Source: Paraconexibacter algicola
GTDB taxonomy: Bacteria > Actinomycetota > Thermoleophilia > Solirubrobacterales > Solirubrobacteraceae
DNA: 64,000 nt
NCBI RefSeq assembly: GCF_003044185.1
Contig: NZ_PYYB01000001.1
Location: 620,001-684,000 of the forward strand
Reading direction: 5' to 3'
Shown here in pieces: positions 996 through 61,608 of the stretch. A model generated the notes under the pieces. It had not been told where the DNA came from, did no database searches, and saw nothing but the letters and a program-made list of their open reading frames with translations. Positions within the stretch are counted from its first letter, which is position 1; each line of letters opens with the position of its first letter. A program made the position numbers and the translations under genes.

Positions 996-1001
996 TATCC
1001 T
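996..1001 (+). promoter_or_regulatory. Leaderless-type -10 box, TATCCT
   Basis: TATCCT ends 8 bases before the GTG start of the GAF histidine kinase. That spacing would place the transcript start at or next to the start codon. No clear -35 element is seen. Confidence 0.45.
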
Positions 1002-1009
1002 CCCCCCGC

Positions 1010-2305
1010 GTGACCGGTTCCGCAGGACAGGAGCTCGACGACCCGCGGCGGCTCGCCGCACTCGAGCGCCGTGGCCTGTTCGCCTCCGCTCCCGACACCT
1101 CGTTCGACCGCTTCACCCGCATCGTCGCAACGGTGCTCGACGTGCCGCTGGCGCAGCTGTCGCTCGTCGGCGAGCACGAGGAGCGCTACCTGAGCCGTCG
1201 CACCGACGACCCCGACCTGGCGGCGATGCTCTCCGGCCCGGTGGCCGACTCGGCGTGCCAGTGGGTCGTGCGCAGCGGCGCCGAGATCGTCGCCGAGGAC
1301 GCCGAGTCCCACGAGCTGCTGGCCGACAGCCCGGCGATCGGCAAGGGCCTGCGCGCGTACTGCGGCTTCCCGCTGCGCCGGTCCGGGGGCGAGATCATCG
1401 GGACGCTCTGCGCGATCGACTTCGCGCCGCGGCCGTGGACCGAGGAGCACGTGAAGCTCGTCTCCGACCTCTCCGACATGGTCGTCACCGAGATCGAGCT
1501 GCGCGACGCGCTCGAGCTCGCCACCGAGCGCACGCAGGAGCTCGAGGACGCGGCACGCGGCCTGCGGACGCTGCAGGACGTGCTCGACGAGTCCGAGCAC
1601 GAGCGCGACCGCACCGAGCGCGTGTCGATCGACCTCGCGTCGACGATCGCGCACGAGCTGCGCACGCCGCTGTTCGCGATCCGCGGGCTCGCCGAGGTGA
1701 TGCTCGCCGAGGCGCCCGCGTCCGGCCTCGCCACCGACGTGGCGATGATCGACCGGACCGCGCAGGAGGCGCTCGAGCTCGTCAACGAGCAGCTGCAGCT
1801 CGCGCGGACGGAGGCCGGGCACGCGGTCGTCGACGCCTCCGACGTCGCGCTCGAGGAGGTCCTCGGCGCGCTGCGCGGCATGATGGCCCCGGTCCCGCGC
1901 GCACCGGGCGTCGAGCTCGTCGTCGAGCCTGCGCCCGCCGACGTGCCGGCGCTGCGCACCGACCCGGGGAAGCTCGCGCAGATCCTGCGCAACCTCGTCG
2001 CCAACGCGCTCCGCCACACCGAGCGGGGCGAGGTCCGCGTCGCGGCGCGGCTCGTCGACGACGGCACGCGGGTCGCGTTCACGGTCCGCGACACCGGGGC
2101 CGGGATCCCGGCCGACGACCTCGAGCGGATCTTCCAGCCGTTCGAGCGGGCGGGCGACAGCGAGGACGGGCGGGGCACCGGGCTCGGGCTGCCGCTGGCG
2201 CGCAAGCTCGCCGACCTGCTCGGCGGCACCGTCGACGTCGAGAGCGAGCCGGGCGTCGGCTCGACGTTCACCGCGACGGTCGCGGCGCGCTACGGCGCGA
2301 CCTGA
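1010..2305 (+). CDS. GAF-domain sensor histidine kinase
   Basis: A 431-residue soluble kinase. A GAF domain (about 25-165) is followed by a coiled coil (about 165-205), a HisKA dimerisation domain with the phospho-acceptor in IAHELRTPL (His215), and a HATPase domain with N box NLVANALRH (about 328) and G boxes DTGAGIP and GTGLGLPLA. No transmembrane helix is present, so the GAF domain probably senses a cytoplasmic ligand or redox state. The GTG at 1010 is chosen because the GAF homology starts just after it and a TATCCT box lies 8 bases upstream. The same frame stays open far upstream, but that part is antisense to the NHL gene and is not homologous. No response regulator is adjacent. Its last 16 bases overlap the 3' end of nhaA on the other strand. 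Confidence 0.88.
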   Translation: MTGSAGQELDDPRRLAALERRGLFASAPDTSFDRFTRIVATVLDVPLAQLSLVGEHEERYLSRRTDDPDLAAMLSGPVADSACQWVVRSGAEIVAEDAESHELLADSPAIGKGLRAYCGFPLRRSGGEIIGTLCAIDFAPRPWTEEHVKLVSDLSDMVVTEIELRDALELATERTQELEDAARGLRTLQDVLDESEHERDRTERVSIDLASTIAHELRTPLFAIRGLAEVMLAEAPASGLATDVAMIDRTAQEALELVNEQLQLARTEAGHAVVDASDVALEEVLGALRGMMAPVPRAPGVELVVEPAPADVPALRTDPGKLAQILRNLVANALRHTERGEVRVAARLVDDGTRVAFTVRDTGAGIPADDLERIFQPFERAGDSEDGRGTGLGLPLARKLADLLGGTVDVESEPGVGSTFTATVAARYGAT

Positions 2306-5319: not shown

Positions 5320-5325
5320 TACCGT
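5320..5325 (+). promoter_or_regulatory. Leaderless-type -10 box, TACCGT
   Basis: TACCGT ends 7 bases before the GTG start at 5333. It supports that start and a leaderless or near-leaderless transcript. The rest of 5177-5332 holds no other element I can support. Confidence 0.45.
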
Positions 5326-5332: not shown

Positions 5333-6820
5333 GTGCTCCACCCCCGCTCGCTCCTGCCCATCCCGCTCGCCGTCGCGCTGACGCTCGTCCCGGCCGCGAC
5401 CGCCTCCGCCGCCACGCCGATACCGCTCGGGACGGTCGCGGCCGCCGACGTCGCCGTCGACGCGGCCGGCGCGGCGCACATCGCGCTCTCGGGCACCGAC
5501 GGCGCCGTGTCGCACTGCCTGATCCCCCGCGACGGGACCGGCTGCGTGCGGCGCACCCCGATCGCGATGCCGGGCGCGCCGATCGGCTCGGAGGTGCACG
5601 TGCAGGTCAACGGGGCCGCGGTGCTCGTCACCGCCGCCCGGTCCACCGGCGATCCCGACGGGGACGGTCCCGCGGTCGCCGTGTCCACCGACGGCGGGGC
5701 GAGCTTCGCCCCGGGCGTCCGGGTCGGCTCCTCGCAGGTGCTCGCCGGCCAGCAGGTCGTCGGCCCCGACGGCGCGCTGTGGCACGGCGTCATGTCCGGC
5801 GGCTTCCTGAACGTCGTCCGCGCCGCGTTCGACGGCTCCACCCCGACCTCGACGCCGCGGCTCGTGTTCGACGGCCCGGGCGCCGGGGTGGACCCGGCCG
5901 GGTTCGCGATCGTGGACGGCGTCGCGGTCGCCGTCCGGCCGACCGACCCCGCGGCGTTCTTCGCCCACCCGCTCGGCAGCGGCGACCCGCACATGGCCAC
6001 CTCCTGGTCGCCGCCCGGGACGCTGACCCCGACGGCGGGGCGCGTGATCGGCGAGCCGAGCCTCGCCAGCGGCGGGCGCGGCATGGTCCTCACGACGCTC
6101 GAGAACGGCTCGCTGGAGGCCGCGATCACCGCCCGCCGCTGGACCGGCGCGGGCTTCGGGCCGCCGGTCGTCCTCTACCGCAACCAGGGCGGCTCCAACA
6201 ACGCCAACAACGGGGAGATCACCGCGGACCCCGGCGGCCGCTTCCACGCCGTCTTCACCGGGGACAACGGCTCGACGCTGCGCTACGCGCGGTCGGCGGA
6301 CGGGGGCGCCACGTGGAGCCCCGCGCAGGTGCTGACGACCTCGCCCGACCGGTCCGTGCTGCGGGCGCGCGCGAGCGCGGCGGCGGACGGGCGCGGCTTC
6401 GCCGTCGCCGTCCGGGGCGAGGAGTGGTTCGCGCTGCCGCTGGAGCCGAGCGCCGGGCTGCCCGGCGAGCCGACGGTCACGACCAAGGTCACCGAGGGCG
6501 ACACCGACCTGCTGCTCGGCCTGCCCCGGGGCTGCCTGCCCGCGGGCGACGTGCGCGTGACGCTCACCCAGAGGGCGCGCAAGGTCAAGACGCGGCGCAG
6601 CACCGGCAGGCGCGTCGTCGTCAAGGTCACGCGGGTCGACTTCTCCGTCGACGGCCGCGACGTCCGCACCGACCGGCGCGCCCCGTTCACCCAGACGCTG
6701 CGCCTCGTCGGGCTCGCACCGGGCTCCACGCACGTCGTGCGCGCCCGCGCGTTCCTCAAGGTCCGGACCGGCAAGCAGCGGACCCGCTCGATCCGCCGGT
6801 CGGTGCGGATCTGCGCGTGA
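5333..6820 (+). CDS. Exported BNR/sialidase-like beta-propeller protein
   Basis: A 495-residue secreted protein. The GTG start gives a signal peptide of about 28 residues ending LVPAATASA. The body carries Asp-box (BNR) motifs such as STDGGASF and SADGGATWS, which mark turns of sialidase-like beta propellers. The catalytic Arg/Tyr set of true sialidases cannot be recognised, so enzymatic activity is doubtful. The last 110 residues form a beta-rich domain between two cysteines (GCLPAGDVRV to RICA) with VDFSVDGRDV, resembling Ig-like C-terminal modules of exported proteins in this group. The ligand is unknown. It converges on the LuxR gene, 6 bases away. Confidence 0.75.
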   Translation: MLHPRSLLPIPLAVALTLVPAATASAATPIPLGTVAAADVAVDAAGAAHIALSGTDGAVSHCLIPRDGTGCVRRTPIAMPGAPIGSEVHVQVNGAAVLVTAARSTGDPDGDGPAVAVSTDGGASFAPGVRVGSSQVLAGQQVVGPDGALWHGVMSGGFLNVVRAAFDGSTPTSTPRLVFDGPGAGVDPAGFAIVDGVAVAVRPTDPAAFFAHPLGSGDPHMATSWSPPGTLTPTAGRVIGEPSLASGGRGMVLTTLENGSLEAAITARRWTGAGFGPPVVLYRNQGGSNNANNGEITADPGGRFHAVFTGDNGSTLRYARSADGGATWSPAQVLTTSPDRSVLRARASAAADGRGFAVAVRGEEWFALPLEPSAGLPGEPTVTTKVTEGDTDLLLGLPRGCLPAGDVRVTLTQRARKVKTRRSTGRRVVVKVTRVDFSVDGRDVRTDRRAPFTQTLRLVGLAPGSTHVVRARAFLKVRTGKQRTRSIRRSVRICA

Positions 6821-9466: not shown

Positions 9467-9937
9467 TCAGGCGCCAGCGATCGCGCGTAGCTCGCGCGGG
9501 CGCAGCAGGACCGCGAGCTCGCCGCGGGAGCCGTCCATCCGGACGACCGCGATGCCGCCCTTCTTCATGTCGATCCGGGCGCCGGTGAGGTCGTGCACGA
9601 CCTGGCTGAAGTCGGGCTCGTGGCCGACGAGGAGGATCCGCTCGCCGTCGGAGGCGGCCTCCAGCAGGGCGAGCGCCTCGCCGGCGTCGAGGCCGACGAG
9701 GGCGTGGTGCACGACGGGGTCGCCGGGCAGCGCCGCGCAGGCCAGGGCGGCCGTGTCGTGCGCACGGACCTTCGGGCTCGTGAAGACGATGACGGGCGCG
9801 GCGTCCAGGGCGGCGATCGCCTGACCGGCGGCGCGCGCCTGGTCCTCGCCGCGGGCCGTCAGGCGCCGCTCGGCGTCGGCGCGTGTGCCGTGCGGCTCGG
9901 CCTCGCCGTGCCGCAGGAACCAGAGCTGTCGGGACAT
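9467..9937 (-). CDS. sixA: SixA-type phosphohistidine phosphatase
   Basis: A 156-residue histidine phosphatase. The RHG motif (Arg9-His10-Gly11) and the second catalytic histidine in LLVGHEPDF (His106) are present, and the short length lacking an extra helical domain is typical of SixA. Family members remove phosphate from phosphohistidine on signalling or PTS proteins; the in vivo target here is unknown. The ATG at 9937 is supported by TACCGT ending 9 bases upstream. Confidence 0.88.
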   Translation of the reverse strand: MSRQLWFLRHGEAEPHGTRADAERRLTARGEDQARAAGQAIAALDAAPVIVFTSPKVRAHDTAALACAALPGDPVVHHALVGLDAGEALALLEAASDGERILLVGHEPDFSQVVHDLTGARIDMKKGGIAVVRMDGSRGELAVLLRPRELRAIAGA

Positions 9938-9946: not shown

Positions 9947-9952
9947 ACGGTA
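9947..9952 (-). promoter_or_regulatory. Leaderless-type -10 box for sixA, TACCGT
   Basis: On the minus strand TACCGT ends 9 bases before the sixA ATG, and no Shine-Dalgarno sequence is seen between them. Confidence 0.45.
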
Positions 9953-11403: not shown

Positions 11404-11433
11404 TTGACGGGCACCGCGCACTTCGCATACTGT
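11404..11433 (+). promoter_or_regulatory. Promoter of the TetR-ACAD operon
   Basis: TTGACG (11404-11409) and TACTGT (11428-11433) are 18 bases apart, and the -10 ends 7 bases before the GTG at 11441. This is the only promoter in the window where I see a good -35 as well as the leaderless-type -10. Confidence 0.6.
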
Positions 11434-11441
11434 CGGGTATG
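11426..11441. promoter_or_regulatory. Candidate TetR operator, CATAC-N6-GTATG
   Basis: Perfect 5-base inverted arms CATAC (11426-11430) and GTATG (11437-11441) flank 6 bases and straddle the -10 box and the first base of the start codon. The position is ideal for autorepression by the TetR protein encoded immediately downstream. Confidence 0.45.
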
Positions 11442-19549: not shown

Positions 19550-19555
19550 AGCCTA
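19550..19555 (-). promoter_or_regulatory. -10 box TAGGCT overlapping an upstream stop codon
   Basis: On the minus strand TAGGCT ends 9 bases before the ctaG-like GTG. Its TAG is the stop codon of the gene at 19553-20248, so the operon from CtaG onward can be started separately. Confidence 0.45.
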
Positions 19556-20256: not shown

Positions 20257-20262
20257 ACCGTA
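20257..20262 (-). promoter_or_regulatory. Leaderless-type -10 box, TACGGT
   Basis: TACGGT on the minus strand ends 8 bases before the ATG at 20248. A GGGGAG run lies between, so a leadered start cannot be excluded. Confidence 0.4.
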
Positions 20263-20298: not shown

Positions 20299-20304
20299 TA
20301 CGAT
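20299..20304 (+). promoter_or_regulatory. Leaderless-type -10 box, TACGAT
   Basis: TACGAT ends 9 bases before the ATG at 20314 of the hybrid histidine kinase. Confidence 0.45.
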
Positions 20305-20313: not shown

Positions 20314-22748
20314 ATGCGGCGTCTGTCGATCGCGCGGTCCCTCCAGCTGGCCCTCCTCGGGCTCACCGTCGCGCTGACCGCGATCGCCGCGCTCGGGGTC
20401 GGCGCCCTCTACCAGTCGCGCCAGGACTACGAGGACCGGCTCGCCGAGGGCCTGCAGCTGCAGGCCAGCGCGGGCCGGCTGCTGGCCGCCGGGGTCGTCG
20501 AGGAGGCGACGCTGCGGCTGCGCCGCGGTCCGGACGGGCTCACCGAGCGCCGCCGCGCCCGCGCCGCGTACCGCGCGGCGAACCGCGAGGCGCTCGCGCT
20601 CGCGCAGGGCGACGCGGCGAGGCGATCACCGCCGCGGCCGCCGGCCAGCAGCTCCTGCGCCTGCGCCCGACCTCGGCGACCGCGCCGCTGGCCGCCCGCG
20701 AGCCGCTGGCCCGGCTCAGCCGCCGTCAGACGCAGCGGATCGCGGACGCCCGCGACGAGGCGCAGAGCGAGACACGCCGGGCCGTGATCGCGATCGTCAG
20801 CGGCGGCGGTCTGGCGTTCCTCGTGGCGCTCGTGCTGATCGCCGCGCTGGTCGCCGCCGTGCGCCGCCCGCTGGACGACCTCGTCGGCGCGAGCGCCCGG
20901 CTGGCCGGCGGCGAGGACGACGCGCGCGTGCGCGAGGACGGCCCGGACGAGCTGCGGCTGCTGGCCCGCTCGTTCAACCAGATGGCCGGGGACGTGCAGG
21001 ACGCGGCGACGCGGCTGCGGCGCGAGCGCGACCGCCTCGACGTCACCGTCCGCAGCCTCGGCGACGCGCTCGTGCAGACCGACGCCGACGGCCGCGTGGT
21101 GAGCGCCAACCCGCGCGCGGGCGAGCTCGTCCCCGAGCTGGCGGTCGGCACCGTCCTCGACGCGGCGAGCGCGCCCGCCGAGCTCGCGCAGGCGCTCGAG
21201 GGCGAGGTCGTCGTCGAGCAGGACGAGACCCGCACGCTCGCGATCACCGCGGCGCGGCTGCCCGAGCAGGGCGGGGTCGTCTGGACGATCCGCGACGTGT
21301 CCGAGCGCGCCCGGCTGGAGCGGCTGAAGAGCGAGTTCGTGGCGACCGCGTCGCACGAGCTGCGCAGCCCGCTCACGTCGATCAAGGGCTTCGTCGAGCT
21401 GCTCGCCTCCGGCGAGGACCTGCAGCCGCGCCAGCGGGAGTTCCTCGACATCGTCCTCGTGTCGACGAACCGGCTCGTCGACCTCGTCAACGACCTGCTC
21501 GACGTCGCCCGGGTCGAGGCCGGCCGGCTGGAGATCCACCGGCGTCCGACCGCGCTGCACGAGGTCGTGCAGGAGGTGACGACGCTGTTCGGTCCGCGGC
21601 TGGCGACGAAGCGCCAGCGCCTGTCGGTCGACGTCCCCGAGGACCTGCCGCGCGCGCACGCCGACCCGGCCCGCGTCCGGCAGATCCTCACGAACCTCCT
21701 CACCAACGCGCACCTGTACACGCAGGAGGGCGGCGCGATCTCGATCACGGGGCGCGCCGACGGGCGCTCCGCGGTGCGGTTCGACGTGGCCGACGACGGG
21801 CGCGGCATGAGCCGCGAGGAGATCGCCACCGTGTTCGACCGCTTCGTGCGCGTCGGCGGCGAGGGCGACCGCACGACCGGCTCCGGGCTCGGCCTGTCGA
21901 TCGTCAAGTCGCTCGTCGACCTGCACGAGGGCCGGGTCGACGTCGAGAGCGCTCCCGGCGTCGGGACGACGTTCTCGGTGCGGCTGCCGGTGAGCAGCGC
22001 GGTCGGCACGGCGGGCGCGGCGCGCGACGCGCTGCGCGGCAAGCGGGTGCTCGTCGTCGACGACGAGGAGGACGTGGCGCGCCTGGTCGCCGAGCGGCTG
22101 GTGGACTTCGGCGTCCAGACCGAGATCGCCCGTGACGGCGCCGGCGCGCTGGAGCGCCTGCGCGCGGAGCGGTTCGACGCGGTGACGCTCGACATCCTGA
22201 TGCCGGGCATGAGCGGGTTCGAGGTGATGCGCGCGCTGCGCGCCGACCCGGACCTCGCGCGGCTCCCGGTGGTCGTGGTGTCGGTCTTCTCGGGCCGCGA
22301 GGCGCTCTCGGGCGAGTGGGTGGTCAGCAAGCCGATCGACCCGGGCGAGCTCGCCGACGCGCTCGGGGCCGCGGTGCTCGCCGACCGGGTGCGCGTGCTC
22401 GCGGTCGGGCGCCCGGAGATCCGCGACGAGCTCGACCGCGGCCTCACCGCGCTGGGGATCGAGCACGAGTGGGCGACCTCGCCGCAGGAGGCGACCGCGC
22501 GGTGCGCCCAGCGCTACTACGAGGTGGCGCTGGTGGACGCCGGACTGCCCGACGCCGCGCAGGTGATCGCCGGCCTGGACCTGCGCGGGCGGCGGCTGCG
22601 CCGCTCGGTCGTGGTGTTCGGCAGCGCCGACGACGAGATCTCCGGGTACGCGCGCCTGGACGCGGAGCCGGTGCCGATCAGCGACGCGGGCGCGGTGGTG
22701 CTCGGGCTGCTCGATGCACCGGTCGGCAGCCGCGCGCAGGACGGATAG
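20314..22748 (+). pseudogene. Hybrid sensor histidine kinase with an N-terminal frameshift
   Basis: The gene is intact except that the frame changes near 20618. Up to there one frame encodes the start, a transmembrane helix (LQLALLGLTVALTAIAALGVG) and the outer sensor domain. After it a different frame encodes the rest without a stop. One extra base after 20618 would join them as QGDAAEAITAAAAGQQ. Downstream domains in order: second transmembrane helix (IVSGGGLAFLVALVLIAAL), HAMP, PAS-like segment, HisKA (TASHELRSPLTSIKGF), HATPase (NLLTNAHLYT, DDGRGMS, GSGLGLSIVK), a receiver (VLVVDDEE, phospho-Asp in LDILMPGMSGFE) and a second degenerate receiver-like domain. It is either a sequencing error, recent inactivation or a recoded gene. 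It is followed by HD-GYP and response-regulator genes. Confidence 0.82.
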
Positions 22749-22751
22749 GCT
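22746..22751 (+). promoter_or_regulatory. -10 box TAGGCT overlapping an upstream stop codon
   Basis: The TAG is the stop of the histidine kinase. TAGGCT ends 9 bases before the ATG of the HD-GYP gene, giving it a possible promoter of its own. Confidence 0.45.
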
Positions 22752-26956: not shown

Positions 26957-26962
26957 ATGCTA
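26957..26962 (-). promoter_or_regulatory. Leaderless-type -10 box for pdxY, TAGCAT
   Basis: TAGCAT on the minus strand ends 8 bases before the pdxY ATG. Confidence 0.45.
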
Positions 26963-27493: not shown

Positions 27494-27499
27494 ACCCTA
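27494..27499 (-). promoter_or_regulatory. -10 box TAGGGT overlapping an upstream stop codon
   Basis: TAGGGT on the minus strand ends 7 bases before the cyclophilin ATG. Its TAG is the stop of the zinc-ribbon gene. Confidence 0.45.
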
Positions 27500-31413: not shown

Positions 31414-31423
31414 ACGGTAGCCT
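31414..31423. promoter_or_regulatory. Symmetric bidirectional -10 element ACGGTAGCCT
   Basis: Read rightward it contains TAGCCT (31418-31423), ending 9 bases before the PfkB ATG. Read leftward it contains TACCGT (31419-31414), ending 9 bases before the oxidoreductase ATG. The TA step at 31418-31419 is common to both, and both start codons are equally distant from it. Confidence 0.55.
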
Positions 31424-37601: not shown

Positions 37602-37607
37602 TACCCT
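37602..37607 (+). promoter_or_regulatory. Leaderless-type -10 box, TACCCT
   Basis: TACCCT ends 7 bases before the GTG at 37615 and helps to justify that small gene. Confidence 0.45.
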
Positions 37608-37947: not shown

Positions 37948-38535
37948 ATGACCGCCTCCGTGCTCTCCGACGGGACGATCCGGCGCCTCGTGGACGAGGG
38001 CCACGTGCGCATCGACCCCTGGGACCCGACGATGGTGCAGCCCGCCAGCGTCGACCTGAAGCTCGGGAACACCTTCCGCGTCTTCCACAACTTCCGGGTC
38101 GCGGCGATCGACCTCGCGGAGCCGCCGACGAACCTCACCGAGCTCGTCACCTGCGAGGAGGGCGAGTCGTTCGTCATCCACCCGGGCGAGTTCGTCCTCG
38201 GCCGCACCGAGGAGTGGGTCGAGCTGCCCGCCGACCTCGTCGCCCGGATCGAGGGCAAGAGCTCGCTCGGCCGCCTCGGCCTGATCGTGCACGCGACCGC
38301 CGGGTTCGTCGATCCGGGCTGGAAGGGCACGCTGACGCTCGAGATCACGAACCTCACGCGCGTGCCGATCGTCCTGTGGCCGGGCAAGCCGATCGCGCAG
38401 CTGTCGTTCATGACGCTCGACCGGCCCGCCGAGCGCCCGTACGGCCACCCCGAGCTCGGCAGCCACTACCACGGCCAGGTCGACGCGACGGAGTCCCGCT
38501 ACGAAGGCGGCCCCGCGCAGTCCTCGGTGGGTTAG
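37948..38535 (+). CDS. dcd: dCTP deaminase, probably dUMP-forming
   Basis: A 195-residue enzyme of pyrimidine deoxynucleotide synthesis. MVQPASVDLKLGNTFRVF, ARIEGKSSLGRLGLIVHATAGFVDPGWKG and LTLEITNL are the conserved active-site blocks. Similarity of the HATAGFVDPG loop to the mycobacterial enzyme suggests a bifunctional form that yields dUMP directly from dCTP. It is followed by two small coupled genes. GACACT, a near match to the TAnnnT box, ends 7 bases before the ATG. Confidence 0.95.
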   Translation: MTASVLSDGTIRRLVDEGHVRIDPWDPTMVQPASVDLKLGNTFRVFHNFRVAAIDLAEPPTNLTELVTCEEGESFVIHPGEFVLGRTEEWVELPADLVARIEGKSSLGRLGLIVHATAGFVDPGWKGTLTLEITNLTRVPIVLWPGKPIAQLSFMTLDRPAERPYGHPELGSHYHGQVDATESRYEGGPAQSSVG

Positions 38536-38538
38536 TCT
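38533..38538 (+). promoter_or_regulatory. -10 box TAGTCT overlapping the dcd stop codon
   Basis: The dcd TAG stop forms the start of TAGTCT, which ends 8 bases before the next ATG. Confidence 0.45.
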
Positions 38539-42056: not shown

Positions 42057-42062
42057 AGGCTA
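42057..42062 (-). promoter_or_regulatory. Leaderless-type -10 box, TAGCCT
   Basis: TAGCCT on the minus strand ends 9 bases before the acyltransferase ATG at 42047. The divergent citrate synthase has a TAGTAT box at 42074-42079 with a leader and an AAGGAG site. Confidence 0.45.
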
Positions 42063-43956: not shown

Positions 43957-43962
43957 TACCGT
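43957..43962 (+). promoter_or_regulatory. Leaderless-type -10 box, TACCGT
   Basis: TACCGT ends 7 bases before the GTG of the GNAT gene. Confidence 0.45.
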
Positions 43963-44553: not shown

Positions 44554-44559
44554 TAGGGT
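44554..44559 (+). promoter_or_regulatory. Leaderless-type -10 box, TAGGGT
   Basis: TAGGGT ends 10 bases before the ATG at 44570. Confidence 0.4.
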
Positions 44560-50200: not shown

Positions 50201-50206
50201 AGGGTA
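50201..50206 (-). promoter_or_regulatory. Leaderless-type -10 box, TACCCT
   Basis: TACCCT on the minus strand ends 9 bases before the GTG of the YgjP-like gene. Confidence 0.45.
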
Positions 50207-50244: not shown

Positions 50245-50246
50245 GC

Positions 50247-51500: not shown

Positions 51501-51510
51501 AAGGTACGGT
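51501..51510. promoter_or_regulatory. Bidirectional -10 element AAGGTACGGT
   Basis: Rightward TACGGT (51505-51510) ends 6 bases before the ATG at 51517. Leftward TACCTT (51506-51501) ends 12 bases before the DUF445 ATG. The TA step is shared. The leftward spacing is longer than in other cases. Confidence 0.42.
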
Positions 51511-52750: not shown

Positions 52751-52776
52751 AACCTTAACACGGTCGTGTCAAGGTT
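52751..52776. promoter_or_regulatory. 26-base near-perfect palindrome over the metF promoter
   Basis: Arms AACCTTAACACG (52751-52762) and CGTGTCAAGGTT (52765-52776) pair at 11 of 12 positions around a central GT. On the minus strand the arms include TTGACA and the -10-like TAAGGT (52757-52752), 10 bases before the metF ATG. It also contains the stop codon of the upstream MBL gene. It is either a large operator or a terminator stem; the A/T-rich arms and position favour an operator. Confidence 0.6.
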
Positions 52777-53788
52777 GGGTAGGGGCGACCTCCCACCGCT
52801 CCGGAGCGCCCTGCTCGCCCGCGACCCGCGCCGCCCGGCCGAGCGCCTCGAGGTGCGTCAGGTACGACAGCGTCTCCGTCATCCGCCACGCCGCGTTGAG
52901 CGCGCTCGTCGCGTCCCCGTACACGCGCGGCAGCGCGTCGAACGCCGTGATCGGCCCGTGCTCGGAGAGCACGAGCTGCACCCGGTCCAGCCGCTCGTGC
53001 ACGAGCTCGCGGTTGGCGTCGATGTGCGCCTGGACGTCGGTGAACGTCCGGCCGTGCCCCGGCAGGCACAGGCGCGCGTCGAGCCGCTCGACGACGTCCA
53101 GCGAGGACAGGAACTCCCCGACCGGGTCCGGCGAGTAGCCGTAGTCGTAGTAGAGCGACACCCGGCCGAGCAGGTGGTCGCCGCTGATCAGCAGCCGCCG
53201 GTCGCGCTGGTGCAGGCACACGTGCGAGGGCGCGTGCCCGGGCGTCTCGTGGACGGTCCAGGGCCCCAGGTCGGTCTCCACCACCACGCCCGGGACCAGG
53301 TCGCGGTCCGCCACCACGACCTCCTCGATCCCGTAGCCGCGCGTCTTCGCCTCCGCCGCGTACGTGCGCAGCGGCGCCTCCGGCACCCCGGACTGCAACG
53401 CCACCTCGATCCGGCGCTCGATCGCCGCGTCCGGATCCGACGCGTTGGCGGTCATGTGCTCCACCGCCGGGTGCATCCACAGCTCGCAGCCGCTGCGCGC
53501 CATGATCGCGGCGGCCTGCCCGTAGTGGTCGGAGTGCGCGTGCGTGCAGACCAGCAGGCGCACGTGCTCCAGCCGCAGGTTCACCTGCGCGAGCGCGCGC
53601 TCCAGGTGCGCCAGCGACCCCGGCTCGTGCATGCCGCAGTCGAACAGCACGATCCCGTCACCGCGGGCGACCGCCCAGGCGTTGACGTGCGGCACACCGG
53701 GCCACGGCAGGGGCAGACGCAGACGCCAGACGCCGGGCATGACGCGCTCGCCACGCCCCACCTCGCGCTTGTGGGAGGGGGAGGACAC
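52769..53788 (-). CDS. Metallo-beta-lactamase-fold hydrolase
   Basis: A 339-residue cytoplasmic protein. The metal motif is CTHAHSDHYG (His83, His85, Asp87, His88); later ligands lie in HETPGHAPSH and ISGDHLLG, and the C-terminal CLPGHGRTF supplies the last His. A helical C-terminal extension (about 245-339, with RVYGDATSALNAAWRMTETLSYLTHLEALG) resembles MBL-LACTB2-type proteins with a winged-helix-like tail. The substrate is unknown. It shares a bidirectional -10 with the next gene, another MBL protein. Confidence 0.88.
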   Translation of the reverse strand: MSSPSHKREVGRGERVMPGVWRLRLPLPWPGVPHVNAWAVARGDGIVLFDCGMHEPGSLAHLERALAQVNLRLEHVRLLVCTHAHSDHYGQAAAIMARSGCELWMHPAVEHMTANASDPDAAIERRIEVALQSGVPEAPLRTYAAEAKTRGYGIEEVVVADRDLVPGVVVETDLGPWTVHETPGHAPSHVCLHQRDRRLLISGDHLLGRVSLYYDYGYSPDPVGEFLSSLDVVERLDARLCLPGHGRTFTDVQAHIDANRELVHERLDRVQLVLSEHGPITAFDALPRVYGDATSALNAAWRMTETLSYLTHLEALGRAARVAGEQGAPERWEVAPTQP

Positions 53789-53795: not shown

Positions 53796-53805
53796 AGTCT
53801 AGGAT
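53796..53805. promoter_or_regulatory. Bidirectional -10 element AGTCTAGGAT
   Basis: Rightward TAGGAT (53800-53805) ends 6 bases before the ATG at 53812; leftward TAGACT (53801-53796) ends 7 bases before the GTG at 53788. One TA step serves both genes in a 23-base intergenic gap. Confidence 0.55.
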
Positions 53806-53811: not shown

Positions 53812-55002
53812 ATGGCCGCCACCCCGACGAAGGTCGCCGACGCGTACTTCGACGCGATCGCCCGACACGATCTCGAGGCCGCCGTCGCGCTCTGGGCGCC
53901 GGGCGGACGCGAGCACGTCCGCGGACAGGTGGACACCGTCGCCCCCGAGGGCGTCCGCGCCTTCCTCGGCGGGCTGCTCGCCGCCGTGCCCGACCTGCGG
54001 TTCGAGGTCGTCGCCAAGACCGTGCAGCGCGAGCGCGTCGCCGTGCGCTGGGTCGCGACCGGCACGTTCACCGGTCAGGCCTACCAGGGGATCGCCGCCA
54101 CCGGCGCGCGCATCAGGCTCGAGGGGATCGACGAGCTGCAGGTCCGCGACGGGCTGATCGTTGAGAACAACGCGTACACCGACGGCATGACGTTCGCGCG
54201 GCAGATCGGCCTGCTGCCCGAGCCCGGCACCCCCGCCTACGGACGGCTCGCCGCCGCGGCCAACGCGCGGACCCGCGCGACCCGCCGCCTGGCCGGCAGC
54301 CGCCCGGAGGAGATCGCCGACGGCGTGTGGCTCGTGCGCGGCGGCGTCCCGCGGTCGATGAACGTCTACCTCGTGCGCGACCCCGCCGACGGCCGGATCG
54401 TCGTCTTCGACGCCGGCATCCGCGCGATGACCGCCGCGGTCGCGCGGGCCGGCGCCGCGCTCGGCGGCATCAAGCAGGTCGTCCTCGGGCACGGCCATCA
54501 GGACCACCGCGGCGCCGCGCCCGGCCTGCGCGTCCCCGTGCTCTGCCACCCCGACGACGTCGCCATCGCGCAGGGCGACGGCGGCTTCTCGGGGTTCGAC
54601 CTCTCGCTGCTGAAGCCGCCGGCGCGATGGCTGTACCCGCACCTGCTGAAGACGTGGGACGGCGGCCCCGTCGAGATCGCCGGGACCGTCCAGGAGGGCG
54701 ACGCGGTCGCGGGCTTCGAGGTCGTCCACTGCCCCGGGCACGCCGACGGGCTCATCGCTCTCTGGCGGTCCTCCGACCGGCTCGCGCTCAGCAGCGACGT
54801 CTTCTACACCGCCAATCCCGAGACCGGGCAGCACGGCGCGCCGCGCGTGCCCCTGCGCGCGTTCAACCTCGACCACGAGCAGGCGCGCGCCTCGATCCGC
54901 AAGCTCGCCGCGCTCCGGCCCGCGGCCGCGTGGCCGGGCCACGCCGAGGGCATCAGCGGCGACGTGGAGTCCCAGCTCCTGCGTGCGGCGGAGACGACCT
55001 GA
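53812..55002 (+). CDS. NTF2/SnoaL-like domain fused to a metallo-beta-lactamase domain
   Basis: A 396-residue two-domain protein. Residues 1-130 form a SnoaL/NTF2-like cone (VADAYFDAIARHDLEAAVALWAPGG, FEVVAKTVQRERVAVRWVATGTFTG, ENNAYTDGMTFARQIGLLP). Residues about 160-396 are an MBL fold with HGHQDHRG (His227, His229, Asp231, His232), HCPGHADG and SSDVFYT, and WPGHAEG near the end. The combination puts a small-molecule-binding cone next to a hydrolase and suggests a hydrophobic substrate. The gene is divergent from a second MBL gene. Confidence 0.82.
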   Translation: MAATPTKVADAYFDAIARHDLEAAVALWAPGGREHVRGQVDTVAPEGVRAFLGGLLAAVPDLRFEVVAKTVQRERVAVRWVATGTFTGQAYQGIAATGARIRLEGIDELQVRDGLIVENNAYTDGMTFARQIGLLPEPGTPAYGRLAAAANARTRATRRLAGSRPEEIADGVWLVRGGVPRSMNVYLVRDPADGRIVVFDAGIRAMTAAVARAGAALGGIKQVVLGHGHQDHRGAAPGLRVPVLCHPDDVAIAQGDGGFSGFDLSLLKPPARWLYPHLLKTWDGGPVEIAGTVQEGDAVAGFEVVHCPGHADGLIALWRSSDRLALSSDVFYTANPETGQHGAPRVPLRAFNLDHEQARASIRKLAALRPAAAWPGHAEGISGDVESQLLRAAETT

Positions 55003-55436: not shown

Positions 55437-56627
55437 CTACGAGGCCGCGAGCGCGCGGTCGATCAGCAGCGCGGTCACCAGGTCGGTCCGGCGCTGCGCC
55501 AGCGGCGCGCCGAGCGCCTCCTGCGCCTGCGCGAGCCGGTGGCTGACGGTCTTCTCGTGCACCCCGAGCAGCGCCGCCGCGCCCGTCTTGCGCTCCCCCG
55601 CGTCGAAGTACGCCCGCAGCGTCTCGCGCAGCCGCACGGCCCGCGGCGTCGCGGCGCCCAGCTCCTCCCCGAGGACCGTGGCGACCAGGCGGCGCGCCGC
55701 GTCCTCGTCGGCCAGGAGCGCGGCGAGCACCGCCACGTCCGGGTAGGCGACCGCGGCGCCGCCCGGATGGATCCGCTCCAGGGCGCGCAGCGCGACCAGC
55801 GCGTCACGGGCACCGCCCACCAGCTCCCCGACGCCGGGACGGACGGTCGCGACCACGCACCAGGTCCCGGCCGGTACGGCGGCGAGCGCGGTCGCCGCCG
55901 CCCGGCGCGCGTCCGTCCCCACGGCGAACCAGCTGACGTGCGCGCCGTCGACGAGGTCGAGCCCCATCCGCGGCGGGTCCGCGAGCGCCGCGGCGACCCG
56001 TCCGACCGCCGCCGCCGGGCCGCCCGTCGGCGCGCGGACCGCGACGACGACCTGCGCGCGGTCGAGCGGGTGGTCGAGCAGCGCGGGGTCCGCGGGCTCC
56101 CCGGCGAGCAGGGCGCGCAGCAGCGCCTCTCGCCGCCGTCCGGACACCGCCGCCTCCGCGGCGATCGCCGACCAGCGCCGCACGATCAGCTCGCTGATCC
56201 GGTCGACGTACCGGGCCAGGTGGTCCGCCGAGGCGCGGGCCAGCCGGTGATGGGTCGCCGCGTCGGCCCCGCTCGCGGCGATCCGGTCGAGCCACAGCAG
56301 CAGCAGCGCGGCCGCCCCGAGCCGGTAGGCGCGCAGCATCACCGGCAGCGCGTCCTCCTGCGCGGCGAGCCGGTCCAGCAGCTCCAGCGCGCCCTCGGGC
56401 ACGTCGAGTCCGTCGGCCGGCATGCCGCCCGCCAGGGTCGTGACGATCGCCTGCACGTTCGCCCGCGAGGTGGAGCGCACGAGCTCCCGCAGCGCGCCGT
56501 CCGGGCCCGCCAGCTCGGGCTGGCGGTCGAGGATCGCGGCGGACACCGCGTCGGTGAGCGCCTCGAGGTCGGGGAGCGCGGCGAGCGCGAAGGCGCGCAG
56601 CGCCGCGTCGTCGAGGTCCTCGCCCAT
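55437..56627 (-). CDS. PucR-family transcriptional regulator
   Basis: A 396-residue regulator. A helical N-terminal domain (about 1-150) is followed by a GGDEF-like middle region (about 165-300) and a C-terminal PucR HTH (about 335-395: VRLRETLRAYFDAGERKTGAAALLGVHEKTVSHRLAQAQEALG). PucR-type proteins control purine, proline or aromatic catabolism. It lies 9 bases downstream of the oxidoreductase gene on the same strand and may control it. TAGCAT ends 6 bases before the ATG, so it also has its own promoter. Confidence 0.87.
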   Translation of the reverse strand: MGEDLDDAALRAFALAALPDLEALTDAVSAAILDRQPELAGPDGALRELVRSTSRANVQAIVTTLAGGMPADGLDVPEGALELLDRLAAQEDALPVMLRAYRLGAAALLLLWLDRIAASGADAATHHRLARASADHLARYVDRISELIVRRWSAIAAEAAVSGRRREALLRALLAGEPADPALLDHPLDRAQVVVAVRAPTGGPAAAVGRVAAALADPPRMGLDLVDGAHVSWFAVGTDARRAAATALAAVPAGTWCVVATVRPGVGELVGGARDALVALRALERIHPGGAAVAYPDVAVLAALLADEDAARRLVATVLGEELGAATPRAVRLRETLRAYFDAGERKTGAAALLGVHEKTVSHRLAQAQEALGAPLAQRRTDLVTALLIDRALAAS

Positions 56628-56633: not shown

Positions 56634-56639
56634 ATGCTA
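56634..56639 (-). promoter_or_regulatory. Leaderless-type -10 box, TAGCAT
   Basis: TAGCAT on the minus strand ends 6 bases before the pucR-type ATG, overlapping the end of the oxidoreductase gene. Confidence 0.42.
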
Positions 56640-58439: not shown

Positions 58440-58445
58440 TAGGGT
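58440..58445 (+). promoter_or_regulatory. Leaderless-type -10 box, TAGGGT
   Basis: TAGGGT ends 6 bases before the ATG at 58452. Confidence 0.45.
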
Positions 58446-58451: not shown

Positions 58452-59612
58452 ATGCCCGTCACCGTCCCTGATCGCCTGCTGCTCGGCTCCGGCCCGTCGC
58501 CCGTCCCGCAGCAGATCCTCGACGCCCTCGCCCGGCCGACGATCGGGCACCTCGACCCGGCGTTCGGCGCCCTCATGGACGAGGTCGCCGACGGCCTGCG
58601 CACCGCGTTCCGGACCGCGAACCGCGTCGCGTTCCCGGTCAGCGCGACCGGCAGCGGCGGCATGGACCTCATGGTCGCCAACCTCGTGCAGCCCGGGGAC
58701 CGCGTCGTCTGCGGCATCCACGGCCTGTTCGGGCAGCGGATGGCCGAGGCGCTCGGCCGGCAGGGCGCGCACGTCGTGCGGGTGGACGCCGAGTGGGGCC
58801 GGGCGATCGACCCGCAGGAGCTCGTCACCGCGATCCACGCGGGCGACACCGCCGCGGCGTTCGTCGTCCACGGCGAGACGTCCACGGGCGTCGCGCAGCC
58901 CCTCGACGGCATCGCCGACGCCTGCCGCGAGCACGACGCCCTGTTCCTCCTGGACTGCGTGACCTCGTTCACCGGGCACCCGCTCGACCTCGACGCGAGC
59001 GGCGTCGACGCGGCGTTCAGCGGCAGCCAGAAGTGCCTCAACGCGCCCCCCGGCCTCGCGCCGTTCACGCTCGGCGACCGGGCGATGCAGCGCGTCGACG
59101 GCGGCTCGCGCTCCTGGTACTTCGACCTCTCGCTGGTGCTCGGCTACTGGCGCGACGGCGGCGCCGCGGGCGGCGCGCGCGCCTACCACCACACCGCCCC
59201 GATCAACAGCGTCTACGCGCTGCACGAGGCGCTCGAGCTCGTCCACGACGAGGGGCTGCAGGCGCGCTGGGACCGGCACGCCACCGCGCACGCCGCGCTG
59301 CGCGACGCGCTCGCGGTGCTCGGGCTGCCGCGCCTGGCGCCCGAGGGCGAGCAGCTCCACCCGCTGCTCGCGGTCACGCCCCCGCCGGACGTCGACGAGG
59401 CGGCCGTCCGCGGCGCGCTGCTGCAGGACCACGGCATCGAGATCTCCGGTGGCCTCGGCCCGCTCGCCGGCCGGCTCTGGCGCGTCGGGGTCATGGGCGT
59501 CGGCGCGAACCCCGAGCCACAGGAGCGGCTCGTCACCGCGCTCGCGACGCTGCTCGGGCGCGAGGCCGCCCCCGCGCTCGATGCGCTCGCGGCGGGCTGG
59601 GCGGCCGCGTGA
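58452..59612 (+). CDS. Class V aminotransferase (alanine-glyoxylate type)
   Basis: A 386-residue PLP enzyme. LLLGSGPSPVPQQILDAL opens as in serine/alanine-glyoxylate aminotransferases; SATGSGGMDLMVANLV and FVVHGETSTGVAQPLDGI bind substrate and cofactor; LLDCVTSF holds the PLP-ring Asp; and the Schiff-base lysine is Lys194 in SGSQKCLNAPPG. YHHTAPINSVYALHEAL follows. The stop overlaps the next gene by 4 bases (GTGA), and together three genes form an operon. Confidence 0.92.
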   Translation: MPVTVPDRLLLGSGPSPVPQQILDALARPTIGHLDPAFGALMDEVADGLRTAFRTANRVAFPVSATGSGGMDLMVANLVQPGDRVVCGIHGLFGQRMAEALGRQGAHVVRVDAEWGRAIDPQELVTAIHAGDTAAAFVVHGETSTGVAQPLDGIADACREHDALFLLDCVTSFTGHPLDLDASGVDAAFSGSQKCLNAPPGLAPFTLGDRAMQRVDGGSRSWYFDLSLVLGYWRDGGAAGGARAYHHTAPINSVYALHEALELVHDEGLQARWDRHATAHAALRDALAVLGLPRLAPEGEQLHPLLAVTPPPDVDEAAVRGALLQDHGIEISGGLGPLAGRLWRVGVMGVGANPEPQERLVTALATLLGREAAPALDALAAGWAAA

Positions 59613-60727
59613 GCCACGAGGAGGACACCGCGACGGTCGCCGGGATCGTCGACCCGGCCGCGTTCGCCGACCTCATCGCGGGCTACTGCCTGGAGGTCGA
59701 GCCCCACCAGCAGGTCACCGTCCGCTCGACGACGCTCGCCGCCCCGCTGCTGCTGGAGCTGCAGCGCGCGATCCTGCAGCGTGAGGGCTGGCCGCTGCTG
59801 CGCGTCGAGCTCCCGGGACAGACCCGCGGGTACTACGAGCACGCCGCCGACTGGCAGCTCGACGACTTCCCGCAGCTGACCCTCACCGAGGCGAAGAAGC
59901 TCGACGCGACCGTGGCGATCCAGGCCCCCGACGACGTGCACGCTCTCCAGGGCCTCGACCCGCAGAAGCTCATGCGCGCCCGCCGCGCCCGCGGGCCCGT
60001 CTCCGAGGCGACGATGAAGAAGCGCTGGTGCACGAGCCTGTGGCCGACCGCGTCGCTGGCCGCGGGCGCCGGCATGAGCCTCACCGAGTTCGCGACGTTC
60101 GTGCGCGGCGCGCTGTTCCTCGACCGGCCCGCCGGACCGGTGGCGGCCTGGAACGAGCTCGGGCACTTCCAGGACCAGCTCATCCGGCGCGTCGCGCCGG
60201 CGAGCGAGATCCGGATCGAGGCACCGGGCACCGACCTGCGGCTCAAGGTCAAGGGGCGCGGCTGGGTGAACTCCGACGGCAAGCGCAACATGCCCTCCGG
60301 CGAGGTCTTCACCGGCCCGCACGAGCGCAGCGCCACCGGGCACATCCGCTTCGACGTGCCGTCGTCCCCCGCCGGGGTCGAGGTGTCCGGCGTCGAGCTC
60401 GAGTTCCGCGACGGCGAGGTCGTCAAGGCCCGCGCCGACGTCGGCGACGCGTACCTCCAGCAGGCGCTCGCGACCGACGACGGCGCCCGCCGCCTGGGCG
60501 AGCTCGGCATCGGCACGAACTTCGGGATCAACCGCCCCGTCGGCGTCATCCTCTTCGACGAGAAGATCGGCGGCACCGTGCACTGTGCGCTCGGACGCAG
60601 CTACGACGAGACCGGCGGAAAGAACCGCAGCGCGCTGCACTGGGACCTCATCTGCGACCTGCGCGGAGGCGGCCGCCTCACCGCCGACGGCGAGGTCTTC
60701 CAGGAGAACGGGAAGTTCGTGCTGTGA
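59609..60727 (+). CDS. M29-family aminopeptidase
   Basis: A 372-residue metallo-aminopeptidase. The active site block VHCALGRSYDETGGKNRSALHWDLICDLR supplies His, Tyr, His and Asp; upstream glutamates lie in MPSGEVFTGPHERSATGHIRF and LGELGIGTNFGIN. The N-terminal domain (ADLIAGYCLEVEPHQQVTVRST) is typical of AmpS/PepS. It is cytoplasmic and removes N-terminal residues. The GTG overlaps the aminotransferase, and the stop overlaps the hydrolase gene, by 4 bases each. Confidence 0.92.
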   Translation: MSHEEDTATVAGIVDPAAFADLIAGYCLEVEPHQQVTVRSTTLAAPLLLELQRAILQREGWPLLRVELPGQTRGYYEHAADWQLDDFPQLTLTEAKKLDATVAIQAPDDVHALQGLDPQKLMRARRARGPVSEATMKKRWCTSLWPTASLAAGAGMSLTEFATFVRGALFLDRPAGPVAAWNELGHFQDQLIRRVAPASEIRIEAPGTDLRLKVKGRGWVNSDGKRNMPSGEVFTGPHERSATGHIRFDVPSSPAGVEVSGVELEFRDGEVVKARADVGDAYLQQALATDDGARRLGELGIGTNFGINRPVGVILFDEKIGGTVHCALGRSYDETGGKNRSALHWDLICDLRGGGRLTADGEVFQENGKFVL

Positions 60728-61605
60728 CTCGCCAGGACGTCTGGTTCACCAGCGGCGGCGAGCGGATCGCCGCCTGGTGGTACCCCGCCGCCGGCCGCGC
60801 CGACGGGGAGCGCGGTACCTGCGTCGTGATGGCCAACGGCTTCAGCATGACCCGCCACGACGGGCTGCCCGCCTACGCGCAGGCGCTCAGCGACGCGGGC
60901 GCCGGCGTGCTCGTCTTCGACCACCGCTTCCTCGGCGACAGCGGCGGCACGCCCCGCCAACGGTTCCGGGCCGGCGAGCAGCTCGAGGACTGGCGCAACG
61001 CGCTCGCCTACGTGCGCGGCCGTGACGACGTCGACCCCGCGCGCGTCGTCGCCTGGGGCTTCAGCTTCTCCGGCGGGCACGTCACGAAGCTCCTGCAGCG
61101 CGACCACGGCCTCGCGGCCGGGCTCCTCGTCTGCCCGTTCGTCGACGGCCCCCGCCGGGTGCTGAGCGCCGGCCCGGCCGACATCGCCTGGCTGCTGCCG
61201 CGCGCGCTCGCCGACCTCGCCGGCCGCCACACGACGATCCCGGTGACCGCCCAGCCCGGCTCCCGCGCCGCGATGACGCTCCCCGGCGAGGCCGACGGCT
61301 TCGCCCGCGCCGTCCCGGCGGGCTCGCCCTGGCGCAACGAGATCTCGCCCGGGCTGTTCGCCACGGTCGCGCTGCACGCCCCGTGGATCACCGCGGCACG
61401 GATCCGCGTGCCGGTGTGGATCGCGCTCGGCGAGCGCGACGTCAGCGCCCCCGCGGCCGGGATCGAGGCGCTCGCCCGGCGCGCGCCGCACGCCGAGCTG
61501 CACCGCTACGACCACGACCACTTCGATCCGTTCGTCGGCGAGGAGCCCGCGCGGCTCGCCGCCGCCCAGATCGCGTTCCTGCGACAGCGGTCACTGTTGC
61601 ACTAG
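60724..61605 (+). CDS. Alpha/beta hydrolase
   Basis: A 293-residue serine hydrolase. MANGFSMTRHDGLPAYAQAL carries the oxyanion region, VFDHRFLGDSGG a lid-proximal strand, GFSFSGG the nucleophile elbow, LGERDVSAPA the acid and YDHDHFDPF the catalytic His. Length and motifs resemble dienelactone-hydrolase or acetyl-xylan-esterase-like enzymes. It is coupled to an aminopeptidase and an aminotransferase, so a peptide-derived or amino-acid-derived ester/amide is conceivable. Confidence 0.87.
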   Translation: MTRQDVWFTSGGERIAAWWYPAAGRADGERGTCVVMANGFSMTRHDGLPAYAQALSDAGAGVLVFDHRFLGDSGGTPRQRFRAGEQLEDWRNALAYVRGRDDVDPARVVAWGFSFSGGHVTKLLQRDHGLAAGLLVCPFVDGPRRVLSAGPADIAWLLPRALADLAGRHTTIPVTAQPGSRAAMTLPGEADGFARAVPAGSPWRNEISPGLFATVALHAPWITAARIRVPVWIALGERDVSAPAAGIEALARRAPHAELHRYDHDHFDPFVGEEPARLAAAQIAFLRQRSLLH

Positions 61606-61608
61606 AAT
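61603..61608 (+). promoter_or_regulatory. -10 box TAGAAT overlapping the hydrolase stop codon
   Basis: TAGAAT begins with the TAG stop of the hydrolase. A start site near 61615 would exclude the in-frame GTG at 61612 and point to the ATG at 61633. Confidence 0.4.

What the first reader, a model, noticed from the sequence alone, without database searches (positions are those of the whole stretch)
996..61608. Widespread leaderless promoter signature: TAnnnT 6-10 bases before start codons
At least 24 genes show TAnnnT (often TAGGNT, TACCNT or TAGCNT) ending 6-10 bases before the start. Plus-strand starts: 1010, 5333, 11441, 20314, 22761, 31433, 37615, 38547, 43970, 44570, 51517, 53812, 58452. 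Minus-strand starts: 9937, 19540, 20248, 26948, 27486, 31404, 42047, 50191, 52741, 53788, 56627. If A and T are each about 13 percent, chance gives roughly one gene with this pattern among about 60. Only the TetR-operon promoter has a clear -35. Leaderless transcription with a TAnnnT -10 is known in Mycobacterium. That it is this dense here, and that it settles start-codon choice, follows from the sequence; the leaderless state itself is inferred.
Basis: partly seen in the sequence, partly recalled or inferred. Interest (0 to 1): 0.72.

Follow-up and report, generated by a model that had tools for sequence, protein, structure and literature searches.

The report
Leaderless-gene promoters, some shared by neighbours
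About a fifth to a third of the genes in this actinobacterium carry a short promoter box placed so that the RNA should begin at, or within a few bases of, the start codon, which is a known actinobacterial habit; the unexpected extra is that some back-to-back gene pairs appear to share one two-base core of that box.

Summary
Confirmed. All 24 listed genes have TAnnnT ending 6-10 bases before the start. Starts called from coding potential alone give 21 of 65 window genes with the box (shuffles: mean 0.6) and 149 of 701 genes in 800 kb of the same genome; same-shape A/T patterns give 4-20 of 701. No general -35 and no Shine-Dalgarno excess in this class. Of 40 Solirubrobacterales-type relatives of the 31433 gene, 37 keep the box. 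The host is a Solirubrobacterales bacterium. The reading, leaderless transcription from a -10-only promoter, is well supported but published for Actinobacteria: Zheng 2011 reports TANNNT about 12 bp upstream in around 20% of genes.

Beyond the finding: divergent pairs 53788/53812 and 31404/31433 share one TA in a self-complementary ANNNTANNNT. Genome-wide this arrangement occurs 40 times against 8 for the reversed pattern; of 39 sites checked, 11 are exact divergent start pairs. Across 30 versions of the 31404/31433 pair the gap ranges from 27 to 178 bp, yet both boxes sit at their own start codons in 24. Transcript ends were not measured.

The parts
996..1001 (+). -10 box TATCCT of the gene starting at 1010 (GAF histidine kinase)
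5320..5325 (+). -10 box TACCGT of the gene starting at 5333
11428..11433 (+). -10 box TACTGT of the gene starting at 11441 (TetR-type regulator)
11404..11409 (+). TTGACG, the only -35-like hexamer (TTG plus at least 5 of 6) at proper spacing (18 bp) among the boxed window genes that were called
20299..20304 (+). -10 box TACGAT of the gene starting at 20314
22746..22751 (+). -10 box TAGGCT of the gene starting at 22761 (HD domain)
31418..31423 (+). -10 box TAGCCT of the gene starting at 31433 (PfkB-family kinase); its TA (31418-31419) is shared with the box of 31404
37602..37607 (+). -10 box TACCCT of the gene starting at 37615
38533..38538 (+). -10 box TAGTCT of the gene starting at 38547
43957..43962 (+). 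-10 box TACCGT of the gene starting at 43970 (GNAT acetyltransferase); start codon open, 44000 is the alternative
44554..44559 (+). -10 box TAGGGT of the gene starting at 44570
51505..51510 (+). -10 box TACGGT of the gene starting at 51517
53800..53805 (+). -10 box TAGGAT of the gene starting at 53812 (SnoaL + metallo-beta-lactamase-fold protein); its TA (53800-53801) is shared with the box of 53788
58440..58445 (+). -10 box TAGGGT of the gene starting at 58452 (class-V aminotransferase)
9947..9952 (-). -10 box TACCGT of the gene starting at 9937 (histidine phosphatase)
19550..19555 (-). -10 box TAGGCT of the gene starting at 19540 (CtaG)
20257..20262 (-). -10 box TACGGT of the gene starting at 20248
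26957..26962 (-). -10 box TAGCAT of the gene starting at 26948 (Phos_pyr_kin-family kinase)
27494..27499 (-). -10 box TAGGGT of the gene starting at 27486 (cyclophilin); the coding-only caller prefers 27471
31414..31419 (-). -10 box TACCGT of the gene starting at 31404 (zinc-binding dehydrogenase, quinone-oxidoreductase-like)
42057..42062 (-). -10 box TAGCCT of the gene starting at 42047 (hexapeptide-repeat protein); the coding-only caller prefers 42008
50201..50206 (-). -10 box TACCCT of the gene starting at 50191 (YgjP-like)
52752..52757 (-). -10 box TAAGGT of the gene starting at 52741 (methylenetetrahydrofolate reductase), lying inside an operator-like palindrome
53796..53801 (-). -10 box TAGACT of the gene starting at 53788 (metallo-beta-lactamase-fold protein)
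56634..56639 (-). -10 box TAGCAT of the gene starting at 56627
31414..31423 (.). Shared self-complementary double -10 (ANNNTANNNT) between divergent starts 31404 and 31433 (28 bp between start codons)
53796..53805 (.). Shared self-complementary double -10 (ANNNTANNNT) between divergent starts 53788 and 53812 (23 bp between start codons)

Best explanation
These boxes are the -10 elements of housekeeping-sigma promoters that act without a -35. They sit 6-10 bp before the start codon, so RNA polymerase should start the transcript on, or within a few bases of, the start codon. The mRNA is then leaderless, or has a leader of at most about 4 nt, and must be translated without Shine-Dalgarno pairing (recalled: by ribosomes that recognise the 5'-terminal AUG/GUG with initiator tRNA). 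Shown here: the box, its sharp position, its enrichment, the general absence of -35 and Shine-Dalgarno signals, and its conservation at the genes tested. Inferred: which sigma factor reads it, the transcript 5' end and the mode of translation. In the tightest divergent pairs a single TA serves both boxes, so one element should fire in either direction but probably bind only one polymerase at a time.
For: Enrichment and position: 170 of 766 genes against a shuffle mean of 9.1 (sd 2.9, max 18). Specific to the order T-A-3-T: the seven permuted patterns give 4-20 of 701 in the genome sample against 149. Not upstream stop codons: genes with a divergent neighbour, which have no upstream stop, show it in 78 of 246. 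Boxed genes lack a Shine-Dalgarno excess while the rest have it, and the 16S rRNA keeps its anti-Shine-Dalgarno tail. Boxed genes use ATG more (121 of 170 against 306 of 596) and never TTG, and the spacer is poorer in A (6-8% at -6 to -3, against 12-15% in unboxed genes). Orthologue footprint for the 31433 gene: box in 37 of 40 Solirubrobacterales-type loci; in those 37 the T, A and T carry 2.84 bits and no position 12-32 bp upstream of the box exceeds 0.32 bits. For the 31404/31433 pair, 30 distinct arrangements (own included): minus-side box in 29, plus-side box in 25, with gaps from 27 to 178 bp. Identical motifs lie at mapped starts of leaderless genes in M. tuberculosis (PMC3898074, passages) and were tested by mutation in Deinococcus (PMC12340547, passages).
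Against: No transcript data for this organism. Boxes at -16 and -15 could give leaders of 1-4 nt, so strictly leaderless and nearly leaderless cannot be told apart. A pyrimidine before the start codon, expected of an RNA start, is no commoner in boxed genes (110 of 170) than in the others (368 of 596). About 1% of genes would carry a box by chance. A few boxed genes do have a -35 (TTG with at least 5 of 6 in 4 of 170, shifted controls 0-1). 385 of 766 genes have neither box nor Shine-Dalgarno 4-mer, so much is left unexplained. In two stretches of other families of the same class only 1 of 38 genes had the box, and four of six genomes elsewhere in the phylum gave 1.4-8.4% (in three of them no more genes than at a control position), so the trait is uneven.
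Confidence: 0.93

Rival explanations
1. The boxes are -10 elements, but the true translation starts lie further downstream, so the mRNAs have short ordinary leaders.
For: For 27486, 42047 and 43970 the coding-only caller preferred starts 15, 39 and 30 nt downstream. For 43970 the homologues that have a box carry it before starts equivalent to residues 4-17, mostly 6-11, whereas the window gene has its box before residue 1; a start at 44000 (residue 11) with a 30-nt leader is possible for this gene.
Against: For 20 of 24 genes the coding-only caller chose the listed start in each run. The peak is relative to independently called starts. Of 29 homologue loci of 43970, 14 have a box at a candidate start of their own, so the placing is kept even where the start moves. 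Boxed genes have no Shine-Dalgarno excess.
Confidence: 0.05
2. The motif is a by-product of composition, stop codons (TAG/TAA) of the preceding gene, or start-codon context, not a promoter.
For: TAG/TAA are stop codons and some same-strand neighbours are close.
Against: Genes with a divergent neighbour show it as often (78 of 246) as the best same-strand class (36 of 109); permuted patterns and internal ATG/GTG codons do not; the box is conserved where the sequence further upstream is not.
Confidence: 0.01
3. The shared-TA elements are not bidirectional promoters: one direction is real and the mirror box is chance.
For: Of 39 sites checked, 12 have a called start on one side only and 11 fit neither class. 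In 79 other genomes of the phylum the pattern is not enriched overall (4,375 against 4,146), and in 11 of 61 family genomes the control is as high or higher.
Against: 11 of 39 sites are exact divergent start pairs and 5 more are within 30 nt on both sides. In the 864 kb sample, of 8 divergent pairs with 22-32 bp between starts 5 have both boxes and 3 of these share the TA; if boxes were placed independently, sharing would be 0-18% of double-boxed pairs at those gaps. Seven of 24 double-boxed versions of the 31404/31433 pair share the TA, in at least three places on the tree.
Confidence: 0.3

Closest known systems
TA-led leaderless genes of Actinobacteria (Zheng et al. 2011, PMC3160421; passages and section 7 read)
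   Same: TANNNT core about 12 bp before the start codon, little information in the three inner bases at high G+C, around 20% of genes, detected by sequence alone.
   Different: Conexibacter and Rubrobacter do not occur in its main text. Here orthologue footprints and divergent pairs are added; the share is 21% in the genome sample and 24 of about 66 window genes if all listed starts are accepted.
Leaderless transcriptome of Mycobacterium tuberculosis (Cortes et al. 2013, PMC3898074; passages read)
   Same: TANNNT -10, no conserved -35, RNA start at the start codon.
   Different: There the RNA ends are measured; here they are inferred.
-10-motif next to ORFs in Deinococcus-Thermus (PMC12340547; passages read)
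   Same: Same motif and placement; there the -10 alone is enough for transcription and adding a -35 strengthens it.
   Different: Different phylum; experimental there.
Bidirectional promoters of Escherichia coli and Salmonella (PMC12825309, PMC10268837; passages read; the 2021 founding paper was not held)
   Same: Symmetric -10 used in both directions; the E. coli paper names 23 bp among the common spacings between the two starts, which by my arithmetic is what a shared TA gives.
   Different: There 18 bp is commonest; 'leaderless' does not occur in PMC10268837 and was not searched for in PMC12825309. Here both presumed RNA starts coincide with start codons, and the 18-bp form is rare (10 sites against 5 in the control).

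Membership tests
Leaderless genes with a TANNNT -10 promoter (actinobacterial type) | TAnnnT at a fixed distance, about 12-16 bp before the start codon, well above chance | tested here: met
Leaderless genes with a TANNNT -10 promoter (actinobacterial type) | No Shine-Dalgarno signal in the class | tested here: met
   17 of 170, against 22 and 28 at control positions
Leaderless genes with a TANNNT -10 promoter (actinobacterial type) | No required -35 | tested here: met
   (no clear information peak upstream); TTG with at least 5 of 6 in 4 of 170, shifted controls 0-1
Leaderless genes with a TANNNT -10 promoter (actinobacterial type) | Start-of-RNA context (pyrimidine before, purine at the start codon) | tested here: inconclusive
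   C/T at -1 in 110 of 170 boxed and 368 of 596 unboxed genes, no real difference
Leaderless genes with a TANNNT -10 promoter (actinobacterial type) | Transcript 5' end at the start codon | not testable with these tools
   no RNA data
Leaderless genes with a TANNNT -10 promoter (actinobacterial type) | Conserved in orthologues | tested here: met
   for the 31433 and 31404 genes; for 43970 (14 of 29); other genes not tested or unclear
Bidirectional (symmetric -10) promoters | Two -10 elements overlapping on opposite strands at a preferred offset | tested here: met
   shared-TA pattern 40 against 8; a 3-bp offset gives 1 against 1
Bidirectional (symmetric -10) promoters | Transcripts in both directions from the element | not testable with these tools
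   needs RNA ends or reporters
Bidirectional (symmetric -10) promoters | 18-bp start-to-start spacing as the commonest form (E. coli, Salmonella) | tested here: not met
   10 sites against 5; the shared-TA (23-bp type) form dominates here. Not filed as a member; the claim is only that it may work like one

The most novel reading that the evidence does not exclude
In Solirubrobacteraceae a ten-base self-complementary element, ANNNTANNNT, is a complete two-way promoter for two leaderless genes: one TA is the core of both -10 boxes, both RNAs begin at their start codons, and 23-32 bp hold all the promoter and start signals of both genes. Because the two polymerases compete for the same bases, the pair would be wired as an either-or switch by geometry alone. 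The shared state has been entered or left several times at the same gene pair.
Probability: 0.5. Interest if true: 0.55.

Novelty: new member of a known kind. Interest (0 to 1): 0.38.

Why it matters
For annotation: in this genome the box is a strong, independent guide to the start codon for roughly a fifth of genes. For biology: it extends the sequence evidence for leaderless expression to an actinobacterial order for which my searches of the held papers showed no transcript-start map, with a natural footprint across dozens of relatives for one gene pair. The shared-TA pairs offer compact, testable divergent promoters in which promoter competition and leaderless translation meet.

Tried and rejected
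Considered and rejected: upstream stop codons as the source of TA (genes with a divergent neighbour show the box equally); a specific TAGGNT/TACCNT consensus (inner positions carry 0.00-0.15 bits); a -35 as a general feature (9, 7 and 4 of 170 boxed genes with TTG plus at least 3, 4 and 5 matches; shifted controls 1-4, 1-3 and 0-1, so a small minority may have one); near-miss boxes as a large second class (some excess: CAnnnT 44 against 22.9, GAnnnT 57 against 25.3 of 596, smaller for the others); a pyrimidine at -1 as support for an RNA start (no difference from unboxed genes).

Tried, little gained: Rfam on the window gave no match and one tRNA-Gly was found. Relatives of the 53812 protein did not give a clean footprint: 30 loci, partner found in 10 of 30 with the own genome counted, starts varying. 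The reverse-pattern control for the shared-TA element is clear in the own genome (40 against 8) and in the family (1,439 against 805 in 60 other genomes; forward exceeds control in 50 of 61 with the own genome counted), but there is no overall enrichment in 79 other genomes of the phylum sample (4,375 against 4,146; forward above control in 38, at least twofold in 9). Box share in sampled relatives, all 17 rows, is.

One search repeats the test with tblastn on all 29 homologue loci: 14 have a box before a candidate start. The count tables are not touched by this.

Papers: searches. 'Leaderless' with 'Solirubrobacter' gave 1 paper (a toxin-antitoxin paper, listing only) and with 'Thermoleophilia' 1 paper (passages). 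'Leaderless' with 'bidirectional promoters' gave 4 (listing only), none by its title on this subject. Absence from print is claimed only for these searches of this open-access library.


Full report
What was claimed and what is there. The finding lists 24 genes with TAnnnT ending 6-10 bases before the start codon. Reading each upstream region confirmed all 24. The window is about 75% G+C with A and T near 13% each. To avoid circularity I wrote a gene caller that uses codon statistics only. On the window it found 65 genes and chose 20 of the 24 listed starts exactly; 27486, 42047 and 43970 were placed 15-39 nt inside, and 20314 was missed. Trained on 864 kb it called 66 genes, again 20 of 24 exactly, now with 20314 but not 1010.

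Chance. With the larger model's starts 21 of 65 window genes have the box at -16..-12; 100 dinucleotide shuffles give 0.59 on average and 3 at most. The window is one stretch of a 4.74 Mb genome in six contigs. In 40 other stretches of 20 kb, 149 of 701 genes have the box. The histogram is 8, 26, 20, 41, 55 at -16 to -12 and 1-3 per position just outside. The seven other A/T patterns of the same shape give 4-20 of 701; the same box gives 4 at -45..-41 and 13 at -60..-56. For window and sample together it is 170 of 766 against a shuffle mean of 9.1, sd 2.9. ATG/GTG codons inside genes have it in 6 of 9,130 in-frame and 1 of 2,883 out-of-frame cases.

What kind of signal. Aligned on the box, only T, A and T carry strong information; the three inner bases carry 0.15, 0.07 and 0.00 bits, and no -35 stands out. 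TTG with at least five of six matches to TTGACA at spacing 16-19 occurs in 4 of 170 boxed genes (shifted controls 0-1), one of them 11441, the TetR-type gene. Boxed genes have Shine-Dalgarno 4-mers at background (17 of 170 against 22 and 28), the others have a clear excess (211 of 596 against 78 and 87), and 385 of 766 genes have neither signal. The 16S rRNA keeps its anti-Shine-Dalgarno tail. Boxed genes start with ATG in 121 of 170 and never with TTG, the others with ATG in 306 of 596; A is scarcer in the spacer of boxed genes, but a pyrimidine at -1 is not commoner (110 of 170 against 368 of 596). By context the box is found in 78 of 246 genes with a divergent neighbour, 36 of 109 same-strand genes with a 16-60 bp gap, 31 of 148 with a longer gap, and 22 of 237 within 15 bp of an upstream neighbour, that is, mostly where a transcript must begin.

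Host and relatives. The protein encoded at 31433 has its nearest relatives in Solirubrobacterales, 85% identical in Paraconexibacter antarcticus and 86% in a Solirubrobacterales MAG. Of 40 such loci, 37 keep TAnnnT at -17..-12; in these 37 the T, A and T carry 2.84 bits; no position 12-32 bp upstream of the box exceeds 0.32 bits, though two nearer positions reach 0.41 and 0.75. In 17 rows of sampled genomes (the own genome, 15 relatives singly, two pooled) the boxed share is 21.4% in the own genome, 8.6-29.5% in seven of its family, 17.4% and 12.2% in two other families of the order, 1 of 38 in two other families of the class, and 1.4, 2.9, 7.2, 8.4, 14.8 and 23.9% in six genomes elsewhere in the phylum; each single relative rests on only 34-86 genes.

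Interpretation. A -10 element 6-10 bp before the start codon puts the expected RNA start at the start codon or within about 4 nt of it. This is the published mark of leaderless genes: Zheng 2011 detected leaderless genes, marked by TANNNT about 12 bp upstream, in 86 of 89 actinobacterial genomes at around 20% (PMC3160421; passages, section 7). In M. tuberculosis measured starts show TANNNT without a conserved -35, and for 26% of genes with a primary start the RNA begins at the start codon (PMC3898074, passages). In Deinococcus the motif was tested by mutation (PMC12340547, passages).

One start left open. At 43970 the box marks a GTG, while codon statistics prefer 44000. Of 29 homologue loci 14 have a box before a candidate start, at positions equivalent to residues 4-17 and mostly 6-11, so the relatives seem to begin about where 44000 lies; the window gene either has a short extension or a 30-nt leader.

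Beyond the finding: shared boxes. Two window pairs, 53788/53812 and 31404/31433, have 23 and 28 bp between start codons, and both boxes use the same TA (ANNNTANNNT, whose pattern is its own reverse complement). In 864 kb of this genome there are 123 adjacent divergent pairs; of 8 with 22-32 bp between starts 5 have both boxes and 3 share the TA. Over this genome plus the sampled relatives, 28 of 287 pairs have both boxes, and the shared offset, with 3 pairs, is the most frequent single offset. Genome-wide the pattern with start codons on both sides occurs 40 times against 8 for the pattern read backwards. Of 39 sites checked, 11 are exact divergent start pairs by the coding-only caller, 5 more lie within 30 nt on both sides, 12 have a called start on one side only and 11 fit none of these. 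The 18-bp form known from E. coli occurs 10 times against 5, and a 3-bp offset once against once.

A natural experiment. For 31404/31433, 30 distinct divergent arrangements (own included) have gaps of 27-178 bp (boxes sought at -18..-12). The minus-side box is present in 29, the plus-side box in 25, both in 24; 7 of those 24, own included, share the TA, all with gaps of 28-32 bp. When the gap widens the boxes separate, and in the double-boxed cases each stays with its own start codon. On a tree of the two joined proteins the shared state appears in at least three separate places (own genome; a clade of four with support 1.000; L205 next to an unshared sister, support 0.995); several deeper nodes are weak. 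This argues that each box serves its own start codon and that sharing is the compressed end state. Bidirectional promoters with a 23-bp spacing are known in E. coli (PMC12825309, passages). Combining them with start codons at both RNA starts was not found in my searches.

Limits. No RNA ends are available. Starts are called, not annotated. The relatives are partly MAGs, and some labels are plainly wrong. The reverse-pattern enrichment holds in the family as a whole (1,439 against 805 in 60 other genomes) but not in the rest of the phylum sample (4,375 against 4,146 in 79).

Noticed in passing
window 52751-52776; L348 2001-2026; L347 2000-2025: A 26-bp palindrome (AACCTT-N14-AAGGTT type) occurs three times in the genome (0, 1 and 1 mismatches) and not in the reversed control: before metF (52741), before a 121-aa MerR-type regulator followed by adenosylhomocysteinase, and before a metH-like gene. 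In the first two the leaderless -10 TAAGGT lies inside the palindrome. It looks like a methyl-cycle regulon repressed by occlusion; which protein binds is untested.
   Followed up: partly
whole genome G000: Forty Sigma70 region-2 matches in 4.74 Mb, a large set of sigma factors; which of them read the TAnnnT boxes was not tested.
   Followed up: no
L062, L064, L072, L073: Records titled Bifidobacterium breve encode proteins 69-71% identical to this Solirubrobacterales protein; the species labels are almost certainly wrong.
   Followed up: no
window 53812-55002: Fusion of a SnoaL-like domain with a metallo-beta-lactamase fold, divergent from another metallo-beta-lactamase-fold gene; ten other genomes of the family match it over nearly its whole length.
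   Followed up: no
window 30399 (-): A called start with TAnnnT at -16 that also has a GGGAGG stretch before the ATG; possibly a Shine-Dalgarno gene with a chance or alternative box.
   Followed up: no
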